Of a stretch of DNA of 64,000 nucleotides, positions 43,713 to 52,435 are shown piece by piece. The notes under the pieces are model-generated. The model had not been told where the DNA came from, searched no databases, and saw nothing but the letters and a program-made list of their open reading frames with translations. The position numbers were made by a program, and so were the translations under genes. Origin of the DNA: Acanthamoeba castellanii str. Neff (lineage: Eukaryota; Discosea; Longamoebia; Acanthamoebidae); NCBI RefSeq assembly GCF_000313135.1, contig NW_004457654.1, positions 1,436,028-1,500,027 on the forward strand, read 5' to 3'. Position 1 is the first letter of the stretch. Every line of letters starts with the position of its first letter.

Positions 43713-44875
43713 TCAAAGTTGCTGGAGCTGAAAGTAGAGGGGTGCACCGTTGCCGAGATAACAGATAGGCAGGAAGCCGCTCTGCGCCAAGCAGCCCTTT
43801 GTGTCGGGAGCCATGATGAACTTGAGACGACATGTGGCGACCGATCCACTTGTCAGTTTTCGCGTGACCATCCACACGCCCATGCTCGCGTAGGTTACGG
43901 CTTCCGTTGTCCCGAAGGAAATCTCGTACGGCGCCGCGTTGAAACTCGATAGGCCAATCGACGACCCGTCGCTCTGGTCCTCAGGGTAGCCCCGAATGAA
44001 CCACCTGCAGTCGTCCGGGTTGCGATCGCTGTCGATGGCCATGTAGAAAAACTCACCTTGACGGAAGTTTTGCCAGGTGAACTGGACGAAGAAGTAGGAG
44101 GAGTTGAAGGGCGGCACGATCATGTCGCAATTGCTGCCGTACCAGCCTTTGCTGCATTGGCATTGCTGCGTGCCGCCACTTTGCGGGACGCAGGTGCCGT
44201 GGACGCAGTTGTAGGCATTACAAGCCGAAGGAGGCGAACCGGTTCGCACTAAGACGCAGGACACGCACGACACGAGCGCGTTAACGGCCGCACGCACACG
44301 ATCAGCCCGGAGAGGCGGGCCACGTACCAAAGAAGGAGAGACCGCCGGAGCATCCGAAGTTGGTAGAGACTGGCCAGACGCTGCCGGAGTTGATTTGCAT
44401 GTACCAGCTTACGGGCGTACCCAGCGAGACCACGTTGCCTGGGGGGTGGGGGTTGGTGAAAAAAGCAGGAGCAAGACAGGTTATGTGTGAGTAGACGTAC
44501 TGGAGGGGTATTGGGTGGAACACCAGGGGTTGCCGTTGGTAGAGTAGGGCACCACAGACTGGCCGGCCCACTTGACATCAAAACAGCAGCTGGAGACGTC
44601 GCCCCCGAGGCTATAGAAAATAGATTAGTTGGAAAGAAAGGCTCCCAACTGACACCCAAACTGCGGTGGTACCTTATGATGCCTGAGTTGGTGTTATATT
44701 CTTGAATGAAGGTGGCCGACGTGACGGAGTTCCATGTGTAGGGCTGCCAGCCAGGGTAGTTGGAGCCTGTGGGACCCACCGCAAAATAGTTGGCTCCGCT
44801 GAAAGCAAGTGACGCTACTAACAGCCAGCCCACCAAAGACAGCCTTCCCAAGTGATTTAGCTCCTGGCTGGTCAT
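43713..44875 (-). CDS. Secreted protein with an EGF-like domain, four exons
   Basis: Minus-strand exons are 44875-44673, 44610-44501, 44438-44328 and 44248-43713 (introns 62, 62 and 79 nt, GT-AG, all phases consistent), giving 319 residues. The N-terminal hydrophobic stretch LVGWLLVASLAFSGA (after a short polar start) is a signal peptide or anchor. Exons 2 and 3 encode a Cys-containing region (VSSCCFDVKWAGQSVVPYS; SGSVWPVSTNFGCSGG). Exon 4 starts with a complete EGF-like module (ACNAYNCVHGTCVPQ, then CQCSKGWYGSNC: six Cys in EGF spacing) and then a beta-rich region (YFFVQFTWQNFRQGEFFYMA) with further Cys. This looks like a cell-surface or extracellular recognition protein. Ligand and family are unknown. 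No internal stops; CpG content is normal. Confidence 0.85.
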
Positions 44876-45735: not shown

Positions 45736-45775
45736 AACACTGTGTCCAGAAAAAGGTGCCAGTGGCACCTTTTGT
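45736..45775 (+). repeat. Left terminal inverted repeat
   Basis: Starts AACACTGTGTCCAGAAAAAG; its inner part also forms a small hairpin (AAGGTGCC-AGT-GGCACCTT). Confidence 0.7.
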
Positions 45776-46209
45776 TAAGTAAAATCTGTACAAGTGATAT
45801 ATGTGTATGTGCAGCGAAAGCAGTACTTTTGTGAACATGGTGTGTGAGTGGTTTTGGCAAAATATGTACAGAGAGTGGCAAAACAGGGAAAAATGGTGTA
45901 GGTCATGGTAAAAGCAGATGGGGCCAATGACAAATTTCAAGGCATAAGTGTAAAAAAGGGCTAATGTATTTTGTTGAAATGAGGAACAGAACAGAGTGGA
46001 GGGAAACATTAGCCAATGGACTTCTGCACTTTCTGTGGACTGGAAGAGGAGGAGGAGCTGGTCTTGGGTGTGAGAGGGGCAAGGGCAGGATGTGAAGTTA
46101 GGCCTTGTAGGAAGGAAGTGATGGCTGTGAGATCTGACTCCTCCAGGAATTTAGAGTGGAAGGGGAGGAGCCAGTTGGCGAGAGAGGAGATGTTGCCCTC
46201 TGCTATGGG

Positions 46210-49200
46210 GGTAGAGGAGAGGCAGACAAAGCTGGAGTAAAGGGCAGCACAGAAGGAGAGGTAGTAGGTGGGATTTGCCTCATAGAGAATGTGGTAGGGA
46301 GTGGTGGGTGATGTGATGGGTGGGGAGAAGGATTGGGAAGCTCTAACCTCTGGATGAGGAAGCTGTAGAGGCTGATGTGAAGTGGGGTGTGGTCTGATGA
46401 TTGAGCAGTGAGGAAAGCAGGAGCAGAGTGGACAACCTCATGTGTTGGGTGTGGGATGGGGATGTGGTGCAGATAGCAGAAGGGTTTGGGGATGGTGTCA
46501 CTGGCCAGAGGATGCCAGATGGTGGACATGTTAACCCTCTTGTGGCTGAAGATGAGAACATTGAAGCCACTGATGAGAGGTTTGGAGGCAGGCATGGAGC
46601 TGGAGTAAGTTGGGGAGCTGTTGTAGAAGTGGAGTAGGCAGAAGACCTGGAGGGTGGAGTGTGACTTGAGTGAGGTGATGGCATTGGTGATGTTGGAGGG
46701 AGATGAGGAGATGTAGAATCTGATGCCATAAGACTTTGATAGGTGAGTTGCTGTGTCCTTGATGTTGAGAGGAATGTCTGTGCTGTGGATGGTAAAGTTG
46801 TGCATGTAGATTGACACCTGTGGAAGAAAAAAACCAGTGGACATCAGGAAATAAGTGAAATTAGAAAAACTGATATGCATCAGGGAAAAGAGTTGACAAA
46901 TAAAAACCTGATGCGCATCAGGAAAAGTGTCAACAAATAAAAAAACTGATGCGCATCAGGAAAACAAGGCAGGCTGATAAATGCACTGGCCATTCATGGA
47001 ATTGTGTTGGTTGGGCAAGAAGCTTGGTGAGTGGCTCAGTGAATTGGGGGAGATACTTTTTCTGGAGAGCAAGCTCTGCTTTGTGCTTGATGGTAGATGG
47101 CGACTTTTCCTCTTCAGCCTTACCCTTGCCACGTTTCTTGGTAGCTGTAAAGAACAAGCATGTGGTGAGCTTGGAACTTTACCAGCAAAATGAAAACATA
47201 CTGGTTGGGGTGGTCAGAGTGGTGCCAGAAGCTTCAGTGGCAGTGGGTACCACAGGCTGAAGTCAGATAATAGTGGTGTAAGTGAAAGTAATGGGGTGTG
47301 AATTGGAACAGGAAGGAGTTGATTTGTACCATTTTCCCCTTGGCCAACACAGAAAGACGCTGGTGCTGTTTGCTTGTGGACGTTGAGGCAAGGGAGGCCT
47401 CCTCTGCTCAAGAAGCTGCAGTGGCACATGCAATCTCCCCTCATAACTGGCAAGGTGTGGTCTCCTCTGCCTCATCACTGAGAAGTTTCAACTGGAACAG
47501 GTGCTTGTGGAACATGTTGACAACTTTGGAGGTGATGCTGTGGGGCTGCTTGATCTTGATGTTTTTACCGCACAGCATGATGTATTCCACAACACAGATC
47601 CAGTCCCAGATGTGGTGAAGCTCCTCAGGATCTTTGCAGAAGCAGTCAGCCTCCATGGCTGCATGAATGGCCTGATGAAAGGCCTCCATCTGCCTTTTGA
47701 TCATGCTCCAGTGGTTGGTGATTAGTGACCAGAAGTTCTCTGGCAAGAGGGAAGTAGTTAGACTTGTGGGGAGAAGAACAAAAGAACTAAAAAGAAAGGA
47801 CATACTCTTGGAAGGGGCTTGGTGTTGATAGTGCTTATAATGACAAAGCACAGTGATCATGTCATTGGCACTCAATTCCCTGAAGGCACCAGAGTTGAGG
47901 TTGTCAAGGGAGATGAACACCTGACCCTCTGGAATGAGGTGATTGAGTTCCTTGATAAGACTGGAAAAGGGGAGCGAGGACTCAAAACAAAGGTGAAGAG
48001 TTAGAGTAGAAATAACATACTCCACCACTCCTGGAGCATGGAACAGGGCCCTTAAGGTAGTCAAGTACTTCTGCAGAGTGGTGGGCTTTGGTGCAGCATG
48101 ACCCTTGAGTGTTTTCTGTGAGGTGTGGGGTGATGAGTAATGGTTTGAAATATGAAGGTGGTGGACATACCAGGTGCTCAGTGAGAGCATTGTAGTTGGT
48201 AACAGTTTTTTTGCCATGTGTGATCTGGAAGAGTGGGTTTTGGCCAAGGGTGTAGTAGTTCAGGGCCTTCTCAAAAGCATTCAGGATGACTGAGCCTGCT
48301 GAGTTGATGTAGTTCTCAAAGCCGGAGATGTGGTTGAGGATGATCCAGCTGAGTTCCATCCCTGCAGCTGCTGGCACAACTTTGTAGACATTCTCCCACT
48401 GCCAGTGCTCAATGAGGTTCCACACCACAACTCTGTGGTTACAATTGATGGCCTCTGGAAGGTTAAAAGTTAGTACCCAAAAAAACCAATGTGCATTGGG
48501 AATTGCAAATAGCCTACAAACTGAATGGCCATGAGTGCAGCTAAAATGAACTGGTGTGGGAAGTAATACCAAACTCATCAATGTTGTTTTGGTCAAGGCG
48601 CTCATCTTCATTGAGAAATCTAACAATGAAGGGCTTGGTTGTGAGACACCCTCCATCCACAACAGACAGCAGCAAGTGACAAATTCCTGGAACTGTCACT
48701 GGGTGATGCTGTTCTGATGGCAGTGCAGGCAGTTAGCAAGTGAAAGCATCTACACATTGCCAGAATGAAAAGAGGAGTTGTACCAAAGATGGTGCAGTTC
48801 CAAATGTCAAGGTGGCATGATGTGGGTTTAACCCAGGTACAGTGCAAAGTTGAAGGGTTGATGCAATCAAGCTGCTCCTTCTGCTGGCGAATTGCTTGGT
48901 CATTGTGGGTCACCCAAAGGCTGGCGCTGATGATGTTGGGGTTGGACTGAAGTGATTGGAAATTTGGGAGTGTATGAATTTTAGTTTCTGAATAGTAAGG
49001 TTGAGGTCAGCAACACAAACTGTTAGAGAACGTGGTTCTCACAAGGTTGAATAAAAAACTGATGTGCATTGGGAAAAGAGTTGACAAATAAAAACCTGAT
49101 GCGCATTGGGAAAAGAGTTGACAAATAAAAACCCAATGCACATTGGGAAAAGAGTCAACAAATAAAAAAACCCAATGTGCATTGGTTTGGAACATGTCAG

Positions 49201-49933
49201 TGTGGTGAACAGTAAAAACACACAAAGTGTACATACCTAGCTCCAGGTCAGGCAGGGCAAGTAGTCTGGTGGCCTCCTTGTGTTGCTCTTTGGTGTTGCC
49301 TGTGGAGTACTGACGCACCACTGGCTGCTTGTGAGGCTTGGTCTTGATCTCCTCCGCCTCCATCTCCTTGTCCACATCAATCACCTCTGGGTGTGCACAT
49401 TTCCTCTCCTTGTGCTCTTCCTCTACCAGCTTGCACTTCCTTGGCAGCACTTGGTGCTCCTCCTCCTCCAGCTCCTCCTCCTGCTCCTCCTCCAGCACTT
49501 CCTCTCCCTTCTCCTCCTCTTTCTCCTCCTCCACTATGTCCTCCTCCAGCTCCACCCCCTTCTCCTCCTCCTTCTGCTCCTCCCCCTGCTTCTCCTCCTC
49601 CTCCTCCTCCAGCTCCTTCTCCTGCTCTTCCTCCTCCTCTGTCTCCTTTTCCTTCCTCTCCTCCTCCTCCTCTTCCATGTCCATCAGCTCTTTTGCTCCC
49701 TCCTCTGCTATCATTGGAATACACTGTGTTAGCAGTTTGAGCAACTGCTGCTTTGTGGAGCCAGTGTCTTGGCCCCACACCTGCAGCAACCCATCAATGT
49801 ACACCTTGGTGATAACCTTGGTGTTGGGTTGCTGGTGCACCTTTGCTAGGGCATTATGGGAGCTTGCTAGAAGCTCAGTGGCCAACATGGCTGAGAAGTT
49901 GGGAAGGCCAGAGGCAGCTTGGTGAGAAGACAT
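46210..49933 (-). CDS. Long multi-exon gene of the DUF7869-like transposon, unknown function
   Basis: The first exon (49933-49237) starts MSSHQAASGLPNFSAMLATE, has a helical region (TKVYIDGLLQVWGQDTGSTK) and a very acidic stretch of mostly Glu (about 49690-49440), and ends QHKEATRLLALPDLELG before a GTATGT donor. Further exons follow with plausible GT-AG borders: SASLWVTHNDQAIRQQKEQL (about 48.99-48.77 kb); KPFIVRFLNEDERLDQNNID; EAINCNHRVVVWNLIEHWQW (about 48.46-48.17 kb); VFISLDNLNSGAFRELSAND; NFWSLITNHWSMIKRQMEAF (about 47.74-47.45 kb); SPSTIKHKAELALQKKYLPQ; and MHNFTIHSTDIPLNIKDTAT (46.82-46.2 kb). I do not recognise the family. It could be the element's DNA-binding or accessory protein. 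Exons are largely stop-free despite CpG loss. Confidence 0.4.
46833..46963 (-). repeat. Palindromic intron repeat array 1
   Basis: Palindromes CTGATATGCATCAG (46870), CTGATGCGCATCAG (46908) and CTGATGCGCATCAG (46946) are spaced 38 bp, separated by GGAAAAGAGTTGACAAATAA-like linkers. A degenerate copy precedes them. The array lies between the last two exons of the long gene. Confidence 0.75.
48478..48502 (-). repeat. Palindromic intron repeat, single copy
   Basis: AAAAAAACCAATGTGCATTGGG lies in another intron of the long gene; the core CCAATGTGCATTGG is palindromic except at the central two bases. Confidence 0.6.
49050..49190 (-). repeat. Palindromic intron repeat array 2
   Basis: Four units (cores at about 49059, 49096, 49133 and 49172; period 37-39 bp) alternate CTGATG..CATTGG and CCAATG..CATTGG cores with AAAAGAGTTGACAAATAAAA linkers. 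They lie in the first intron of the long gene. Confidence 0.75.
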
Positions 49934-50189
49934 TGAAAGGAAGTGTGTGTTGAACGTGGGTGGTACAACAAAATGATCAAAACAGGTTGTTCAACGTTTT
50001 ATAGGTAATGTAGGTCTACAAAAAAAGCTGTCCACATTAAATTCTAATTGGAGGGACAGGAAACAGGGGGCGAAATTTCATTAACCCTCAGAGTAGGCTC
50101 CTTGGGTGTGGTAGGCTTTGTCCCAGATCACTGGTAGAACGCCTCAGTTACAAGGACCAATGCCACCAAGCAACAAGTCAACCAAGTCT

Positions 50190-51663
50190 TTACATGAGCC
50201 TGATCATTGACTACTCCAACCCACTCCCTCTCCCCACCCACACTCCTGTGCCAAAGGCCTGGATGCACTTTGGCAACCAGTTCACCATGGTTCTTGGTGG
50301 TCTCATTGACCACAGCCATGGCAAACACCTCTTTCTACACCCTCAGCCCTTTTGGCCAAAAGATGCTAACCTTGTCATCTCCACACTCTTTCACCACATC
50401 TGAACTCGCCTTTTGACTAACACTGCCTCCAACACTCGCCCTTCTATCCTCTACCTGCAGGCTGACAATTGTGCTGCTGAGAACAAGAATGTCTTCATGC
50501 TTGCCTTCCTCAGTCTCCTGGTCAGCCTGGATATGTTCCAAGAGGTCTACCTGAGCTTTCTGTTGGTTGGGCATACACATGAAGACATCAACCAGCTCTT
50601 CTCCACTGCTCAGACAAAGTTCCATACCTCTTCCATTCACACCCCAAGGTAATGGTCATCACTCTTTTTTTGTGTTGATTGTTTTCCTGATGTGCATTGG
50701 GTTTTTTATTTGTCAACTCATTACCCCAATGCGCATCAGTTTTTTCTGTCAGCATTAATGATTGCCCCTTTTTGTTCACCTTCCTAACTTCATCTTCAAA
50801 TTTCAGTCAACTTTCTGGTTTTCTTGAGCAGGCTTACCAATCCACTGGCCCAGCTCCTTCCCTGCACACCCTTGAAACTGTTTGGGACTGGAAGAGCTTG
50901 GAAATCACATGCATGGCCTGACTGGTCACTCCACCCCCCATGTTTTCCATTTTTTCTGTGATGCTTCAGGCAAACCAGTGATCTGGGACAAAGCATACCA
51001 CACCCAAGGAGCCTACTCTGAGCCATACCAGCTTCTCACATCCATTCTGACTGGTTTACTCCCCTTCCTCCTCACTATGTTGCACACACCCTACCAAAAG
51101 ATATCACAACTTACACAAACCACATCAGGAGCACCTTTCACTATCCTGCCTCAGCAATTTCCGCCTGAAGTGCTTACTGAGTTGGCTGACAACTGCCATG
51201 CTCCACTGTTCCTTGAGTCTGAGCTTAGTGAGTGGGCTGTTATCTTTGAAGCTCATGAGGCTCCCAACCCACCTGTGCTAACTTGATTTTTGATGGACTC
51301 ACAGCTCACCCCATCACTAATCCTCTCCTTGATGGTCCATTGTTCCATCTCCAAACCAGGGTCAAGGTTGTCCACACACAGACTACACCCCAAGTCCAAC
51401 GTTTCAACTTTGCTCCTGGTCAGTGGGTTGCTGTCTGGGCTGATGCTGATGAAGACACTCAGGACTTTTGGATATGCAAGATCATCAGCGTTCTCCATAA
51501 GAGGCTCCATGTCCACTGGTGGAACTTTGCTAATGGACGCTGGACTGACCATGGCTCAGAAAGCACTGTTCCAATGGGGTCTGTTTTAGCTTGTGGCTTT
51601 GACTTTAATGCCAACACTGGAGTTCCCCCACCCACCCTTCAAGAAATATTTAGACACCTGTAA
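50190..51663 (+). pseudogene. DUF7869-like gene, probable transposase candidate, degenerate
   Basis: The frame from about 50194 reads SLIIDYSNPLPLPTHTP, HFGNQFTMVLGGLIDHSHGK, a TGA at 50401, then ILYLQADNCAAENKNVFML and VYLSFLLVGHTHEDINQLF (to about 50650). The order 'I-x-D-Y', 'L-Q-A-D-N-C-x-x-x-N-K-N' and 'L-x-V-G-H-T-x-E-D-h-x' is that of DUF7869 as I know it, with Asp residues spaced as in an RNase-H-type fold. After an intron come VFHFFCDASGKPVIWDKAY (about 50942-51000) and FNFAPGQWVAVWADADEDTQ with FWICKIISVLHKRLHVHWWN (about 51405-51525), resembling a small chromatin-reader-like barrel, to TAA 51661-51663. Phase changes between blocks are part introns and part decay. The TGA is again where CGA is expected. 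Catalysis is inferred, not known. Confidence 0.55.
50683..50745 (+). repeat. Palindromic intron repeat in the opposite-strand gene
   Basis: CCTGATGTGCATTGGG and CCCAATGCGCATCAG, separated by a TTTTTTATTTGTCAACTCAT-type linker (the reverse complement of the linker in the other arrays), lie in the intron of the DUF7869-like gene. Confidence 0.7.
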
Positions 51664-51737
51664 ATAAAACTTCTCTTCTCTGTGTACATTCAAATTCCAC
51701 AGTGTTTTTATCTCCTGTACACCTGTTTTTAGTTTCA

Positions 51738-51777
51738 TTAAAAAGTACCACTATCACCTTTTTCTGGACACAGTGTT
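51738..51777 (-). repeat. Right terminal inverted repeat
   Basis: Reading inward on the minus strand from 51777 it matches the left end for the first 23 bp without mismatch and then with about four mismatches over the next 16. Confidence 0.7.
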
Positions 51778-51781
51778 ATCC

Positions 51782-52435
51782 AGTGCAGAGCTTGCTTGCC
51801 AAACTGAATTTCACTTCCTCCTTTAATCCATCTTGAATGGGATTGTATTGACTGATATGAAGTGGGAACTGTTGGCCAGTTGTATCTGGTGGTTGGTGTT
51901 GTATATGTACATCTTTGTCCTGTCCTCAGCTTAATACACTTGATTTTGAAATGGTTAGGGATGTAACAATTCATATTTTGGTCCACCCTCACAAAGCACA
52001 AATCAAGGATTGCCCTCTGCATTGCTGAGAATACTTTGATTGATTCTCCTATAACTTGCGCTCATTTGAAATGAGAGGTCACAAATGACCATGGAAATTA
52101 TGTTGTGCTAAAATTGTGTGAGATTTGACATTCTTGCTTTATAGGGCAGTTTTGAAGATTTGGAACTGAATCTGTGATATTGATATGCTAGACTGCTGCT
52201 GATAAGTGATATTGAGGGACTGGAGATAAAAAAGATTTCATAAAAACTTGAAATGTGTGGAGTTGAAAGTGATTGTTATCAGTGAGCGTGAGAGAGCTTT
52301 GTTATGGTGGAATTTTATCTTCAGGAATAGTGCTCCAATTCAGCAGCACAAATAACTTGTGGTCATTTGAAATGAGAGGTCCAGTCATTTTGAAAAGTGA
52401 TTTTGTTTGTGAGTTTAAGCCTCTATAAATGGTTT
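51782..52435. other. A/T-rich stretch without gene
   Basis: The lowest-GC part of the window, with many stop codons. Apart from the two TCATTTGAAATGAGAGG copies nothing was recognised. Confidence 0.4.

What the first reader, a model, noticed from the sequence alone, without database searches (positions are those of the whole stretch)
45736..51777. A 6-kb terminal-inverted-repeat transposon built around a DUF7869-like gene
Seen: matching inverted ends (first 23 bp identical, about 39 bp similar), ATCC directly outside both ends, and two divergent genes inside. One gene has the IxDY / LQADNCxxxNKN / VGHTxED pattern of DUF7869. The other encodes a long unrecognised protein with a Glu-rich stretch. 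Inference: DUF7869, with spaced Asp residues, may be an RNase-H-fold transposase, and this element gives its boundaries, partner gene and possible 4-bp target duplication. I know of no established mobile-element family defined this way.
Basis: partly seen in the sequence, partly recalled or inferred. Interest (0 to 1): 0.88.

Follow-up and report, generated by a model that had tools for sequence, protein, structure and literature searches.

The report
Jumping gene powered by DUF7869 protein
The window holds a broken copy of a repeated "cut-and-paste" jumping gene of an amoeba, whose moving enzyme is very probably a protein domain so far listed only as "of unknown function", so the find may give that widespread domain a job.

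Summary
The finding holds up. The element at 45736-51777 has inverted ends (23 bp identical, 34 of 39 overall) and ATCC on both sides. The genome is Acanthamoeba castellanii Neff. At least 20 left and 14 right ends of this family (A) occur there. All 9 copies with both standard ends carry a perfect 4-bp direct repeat, each its own. Two more DUF7869 families with other inverted ends also show 4-bp repeats: C in 7 of 11 pairs read, B in 1 of 2. Two family A copies have uninterrupted paralogous empty sites.

The window copy is dead: DUF7869 is 5'-truncated with a stop and a frameshift, and the partner gene stops early. The partner occurs in families A and B, was not detected in the one family C element examined, and has no known role.

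Open: a new superfamily, or a lineage of a known one with 4-bp duplications (Sola is the main candidate). No tool here held Sola sequences.

The parts
45736..51777 (.). Transposon copy, family A, internally deleted (6042 bp against 7433 bp of L020)
   Evidence: Ends shared with other copies; 4-bp repeat outside; comparison with L020
45732..45735 (.). Left 4-bp target duplication ATCC
51778..51781 (.). Right 4-bp target duplication ATCC
45736..45774 (+). Left terminal inverted repeat
   Evidence: 34 of 39 match the right end
51739..51777 (-). Right terminal inverted repeat
50136..50650 (+). Remaining part of DUF7869 exon 1 (acidic motifs kept, one TGA inside, 5' part deleted)
   Evidence: three-frame translation; PF25273 match at G000:C44:1486308-1486679; intact exon in L020
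50823..51663 (+). DUF7869 exon 2, frameshifted near 51283; exon start approximate
50082..50135 (.). Break of a deletion of about 1.28 kb relative to L020, filled by an inverted copy (50087-50135) of 50974-51022
46203..49933 (-). Partner gene of unknown type, several exons, Glu-rich first exon, last exon stops early here
   Evidence: exon borders not determined
46865..46967 (.). Palindromic minisatellite, unit about 38 bp, cluster 1
49053..49190 (.). The same minisatellite, cluster 2
50652..50745 (.). The same minisatellite, cluster 3, between the two DUF7869 exons

Best explanation
The element is a non-autonomous, internally deleted copy of a cut-and-paste DNA transposon. The DUF7869 protein is its transposase: an RNase-H-like DDE/D enzyme that pairs the two inverted ends, cuts them, and joins them to target strands staggered by 4 bp; gap filling leaves the 4-bp direct repeat. 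Shown: repeated ends, 4-bp duplications in three families with different tips, empty sites, DUF7869 inside the elements, conserved acids, predicted fold. Inferred: catalysis by DUF7869, cutting out rather than copying, and that the inverted filler and internal deletions come from failed gap repair after excision. The second gene (families A and B) may be an accessory DNA-binding or assembly factor; that is a guess.
Against: No Foldseek match reaches E <= 0.001, and the model (mean pLDDT 71.7, pTM 0.63) is of a homologue, P0005, 35% identical to the family A exon in alignment A1. Four of 11 family C pairs and 1 of 2 family B pairs lack a matching 4-bp repeat; a possible tenth family A pair is imperfect, AGAC/AGAT. 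By sequence no link to a known transposase family: Pfam's only other transposase hit is at E 0.31 in 1 of 28 proteins, and no transposase in the PDB is hit at E <= 10. No activity was tested.
Confidence: 0.86

Rival explanations
1. It is a member of the known Sola superfamily (DDD/E transposases, 4-bp duplications), and DUF7869 is Pfam's unlabelled name for a Sola lineage. The mechanism would be the same; only the novelty falls.
For: 4-bp duplications as in Sola2 elements of the amoebozoans Dictyostelium fasciculatum and Polysphondylium pallidum (PMC3627910 passages); Sola encodes a DDD/E transposase (PMC9587614 passage). From memory, Sola transposases carry related DN(C)xxxNKN and GH(T/S) motifs.
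Against: No Dictyostelid or Sola-named protein among the 60 and 41 hits (both searches capped by shared words). Those Dictyostelid Sola2 duplications are AT-rich; here they are not. None of this is decisive.
Confidence: 0.45
2. DUF7869 is a passenger or accessory gene, and another protein (the partner, or one encoded elsewhere) moves the element.
For: The partner is conserved in families A and B; many copies lack an intact DUF7869, so they must be moved by something supplied from elsewhere.
Against: The partner was not detected in the family C element examined and has no nuclease-like domain found, whereas DUF7869 is in all three families and has the transposase fold.
Confidence: 0.08
3. The copies arose by segmental duplication and the inverted ends are a chance repeat.
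For: 49 inverted-repeat pairs exist in the stretch.
Against: Each copy has its own flanks and 4-bp repeat, and empty sites exist.
Confidence: 0.01

Closest known systems
Sola superfamily (Sola1/2/3)
   Same: DDD/E transposase; 4-bp duplications, reported in other amoebozoans
   Different: Not testable by sequence here; reported Dictyostelid Sola2 targets are AT-rich, the duplications here are not
mariner/Tc1 (Mos1, Metnase domain)
   Same: Best structural match of the predicted catalytic core
   Different: mariner/Tc1 duplicate TA, 2 bp (PMC10045372 passage); 4 bp here. No sequence match to those solved structures at E <= 10
Kolobok and piggyBac
   Same: 4-bp duplications
   Different: Kolobok and piggyBac are TTAA-specific, piggyBac has 5'-CC ends; here 0 of the 17 perfect duplications is TTAA and the ends are 5'-AA
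Ginger1/Ginger2 and retroviral integrases
   Same: 4, or 4 to 5, bp duplication for Ginger (PMC10045372 passage); integrase folds rank high for the model
   Different: No Pfam integrase match in the 28 aligned proteins at E <= 1

Membership tests
Cut-and-paste TIR DNA transposon | Terminal inverted repeats shared by dispersed copies | tested here: met
Cut-and-paste TIR DNA transposon | Target duplication of fixed length | tested here: met
   4 bp in 9 of 9 family A copies with standard ends, 7 of 11 family C pairs, 1 of 2 family B pairs
Cut-and-paste TIR DNA transposon | Uninterrupted empty site with one copy of the duplication | tested here: met
   two copies, paralogous sites: 4 of 4 fetched for L025, 2 of 2 for L019, the latter diverged
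Cut-and-paste TIR DNA transposon | Encodes a DDE/D transposase | tested here: met
   predicted fold and conserved acids; catalytic activity not tested
Cut-and-paste TIR DNA transposon | Excision from the donor site | not testable with these tools
   only indirect: internal deletions and an inverted filler
Sola | 4-bp target duplication | tested here: met
Sola | Significant sequence similarity to Sola transposases | not testable with these tools
   no Sola sequence at hand; defining papers not held
Sola | DDD/E catalytic triad | tested here: inconclusive
   D210 and D315 conserved; the third acid may be E354, D355 or D357
mariner/Tc1 | TA target duplication of 2 bp | tested here: not met
   4 bp in 8 of 8, 2 bp in 1 of 8 by chance
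Kolobok / piggyBac | TTAA target | tested here: not met
   0 of 17 perfect duplications
Ginger | Retroviral-type integrase core by sequence | tested here: inconclusive
   no Pfam integrase hit in 28 proteins at E <= 1; integrase folds are among the structural matches

The most novel reading that the evidence does not exclude
DUF7869 defines an undescribed superfamily of eukaryotic cut-and-paste transposons (AA...TT tips, 4-bp duplications without a fixed target sequence, a CxxC motif before the catalytic core, a D...D...GHTHED signature), present in Amoebozoa and several animal phyla, with an Acanthamoeba branch that carries a second gene of unknown type.
Probability: 0.4. Interest if true: 0.72.

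Novelty: new variant of a known kind. Interest (0 to 1): 0.62.

Why it matters
DUF7869 is a Pfam domain without a function, found here in proteins named from sea urchins, a hydrozoan, a coral, bivalves, a nemertean, a hemichordate and in many unnamed environmental contigs. Assigning it to a transposase gives those proteins a testable activity, suggests that many are mobile-element genes rather than host genes, and supplies families with exact ends and duplication length, so a transposition assay can be designed directly. If it is not Sola, it adds a superfamily to the roughly 20 DDD/E superfamilies listed in Repbase (counts).

Tried and rejected
Homes of DUF7869 in viral or bacterial contigs: 0 confirmed loci in viral contigs (23 stretches matched the pattern, none a relative); 2 loci in contigs binned as Bacteroidetes (L088, L089), probably mis-binned eukaryotic DNA, with no convincing inverted ends in L088 (L089 was looked at for inverted repeats only). 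Sola test by motif: a degenerate DNA pattern for a Sola-like motif recalled from memory gave 4 viral loci, none a relative; the same motif as a text search gave 5 unrelated papers. The profile search at E <= 10 gave 41 proteins, 40 with PF25273 and one (P0100) without a Pfam domain (only the 7986 candidates sharing most words were scored). Partner: no Pfam, NCBIfam or convincing PDB relative; the AlphaFold2 model of P0064 is unusable (mean pLDDT 43); no homologue in the C210 element of family C (best E 0.21). The BFVD structure search gave nothing at E <= 0.001. The pairing C142:56035-66571 was dropped as wrong: its left tip more likely belongs with the family A right end at C142:61678, where the flanks read AGAC/AGAT, an imperfect duplication. 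The family A ends in L026 and L027 face the wrong way to pair, and L028-L036 hold at most one end each. Several further family C pairs visible (for example on C9, C94, C229) were not fetched. Print: DUF7869 occurs in 0 papers of the held library; 36 papers hold at least one of 'GHTHED', 'PF25273', 'DUF7869' inside words, and the 20 listed are unrelated and hold only the first. The listings of searches show no such family by name; I did not open most of those papers. Read as passages found by term: PMC3627910, PMC10045372, PMC3985635, PMC4495683, PMC4455052, PMC10294476, PMC9587614, PMC12210455. The original Sola paper and the catalytic-domain survey are not held; what I say of Sola beyond searches is recalled.

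Full report
What was checked. The window is G000:C44:1436028-1500027 in a 38.4-Mb assembly of 250 contigs. Four partner-gene homologues are named proteins of Acanthamoeba castellanii str. Neff, and two of their contigs have 614167 and 165220 bases, the lengths of C93 and C248 here, so the host is that amoeba (lineage).

Ends and copies. The first 23 bases of 45736-51777 equal the reverse complement of the last 23, and 34 of 39 match; ATCC flanks both ends. The left 65 bp match 22 places and the right 98 bp match 15; two of the 22 are right ends found through the inverted repeat and two of the 15 are pieces of one end, so at least 20 left and 14 right ends exist. Many are unpaired. Twenty loci were fetched. 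In eight, both ends were found by pattern, and 8 of 8 have a perfect 4-bp direct repeat: CTCT, ATCC, TGGT, GGCA, CCTC, AGCT, CCTT, CATC. At other lengths, 2 bp fits one of the eight and 3 or 5 to 12 bp fit none; 0 of 56 mispaired flanks match at 4 bp. A ninth copy, L022, escaped the pattern because its right tip is two bases shorter; its flanks are CAGT/CAGT. A possible tenth with a variant left tip (C142:56035-61678) reads AGAC/AGAT, an imperfect repeat.

Other DUF7869 families. PF25273 gives 44 matches in the genome, 43 over the cut-off, and none in 14 control genomes. By DNA similarity they fall into family A (this one), family B (about 70% identical to A), family C (mostly 87-96% among themselves) and a few relics. 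Family C has different tips (AACTTGTGGTCATTTGAAATGAGAGGTC); its right and left ends gave 42 and 40 matches, both lower bounds. Of 10 pairs fetched, 7 have perfect 4-bp repeats (CTTG, CCCA, CCTT, TAGG, TTGT, TAAG, CTAT) and 3 do not; 2 of 90 mispaired flanks match. An eleventh pair, L062, does not match (CAAT/CAAG). Two of the seven are long elements whose span holds a DUF7869 match: C210:27845-34092 (6248 bp) and C124:201193-209261 (8069 bp); the shortest fetched pairs span 378 to 630 bp and are probably deletion derivatives. Family B has tips AATGGAGTGCTC; the pair on C48 has TTGT on both sides, the pair on C62 does not match. All three families begin AA and end TT.

Empty sites. The joined flanks of L025 match several places across the insertion point; in the four fetched (91-98%) the sequence runs through it with a single CATC. 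Some of the matching places lie, by coordinates, within family C elements (C124:202037, C154:4202, C207:316296), so this copy of A had probably landed in a copy of C. The joined flanks of L019 match more diverged paralogues (75-76% in most rows); in 2 of 2 fetched the alignment is unbroken at the insertion point, with small gaps a few bases upstream. One search showed no such site for the other six copies. This is direct evidence of insertion with duplication.

State of the window copy. Against L020 it lacks about 1.28 kb that includes the 5' part of DUF7869, and an inverted copy of 50974-51022 sits at the break. The kept stretch has all three acidic motifs but one TGA; exon 2 is frameshifted near 51283; the partner's last exon stops early at 46203. 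The eight copies compared range from 1552 to 7433 bp, with different internal deletions between kept ends. Such deletions and inverted fillers are what failed gap repair after excision leaves (inference; recalled from other cut-and-paste systems).

The partner gene. It starts at 49933 on the minus strand and runs towards the left end in several exons, Glu-rich near its start. A 299-aa piece gives 37 matches, in family A copies and more weakly on C48 (inside the family B element), C62 and C51, and 6 proteins in the large database, 4 from Acanthamoeba and 2 unnamed. It has no known domain, no convincing solved relative and no usable model. The C210 element of family C has a charged minus-strand frame in the same half but no detectable similarity. 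So a second gene is not shown to be required.

Reading. Fixed-length duplications, empty sites and repeated inverted ends establish a TIR transposon. One gene type shared by three families with different tips, with the predicted transposase fold and conserved acids, makes DUF7869 the transposase with high probability. What remains open is the superfamily. Sola shares the 4-bp duplication and is reported in other amoebozoans, but no Sola sequence was at hand and the defining papers are not held. I therefore call it a new variant of a known kind, with about 0.4 for a new superfamily.

Noticed in passing
window 46865-46967, 49053-49190, 50652-50745; L020 1348-1425, 3081-3195, 4136-4438: A palindromic minisatellite (unit about 38 bp, core close to CCTGATGCGCATCAGG) recurs between exons of both genes, with different unit numbers in different copies. 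A genome search gave 46 matches; by coordinates 42 lie in or beside family A loci and 4 on C207:454771-456545.
   Followed up: partly
window 52053-52080 and 52354-52380: Two ends of family C lie just right of the element: a right-type end and, 300 bp on, a left-type end, both with their bodies to the right.
   Followed up: partly
window 50082-50135 with 50974-51022: A 49-bp inverted copy of element sequence fills the break of an internal deletion.
   Followed up: partly
P0067 (Tubulanus polymorphus, 920 aa): A predicted protein with both protein kinase domains and DUF7869, perhaps a fusion of a host gene with a transposon gene or a gene-model error.
   Followed up: no
P0005; L088; L089: DUF7869 genes in contigs binned as bacteria (Vulcanimicrobiaceae, Bacteroidetes MAGs), probably eukaryotic contamination.
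   Followed up: partly
window 43713-44875, minus strand: Open frames with an EGF-like cysteine pattern and a hydrophobic N-terminal stretch left of the element, judged by eye only.
   Followed up: no
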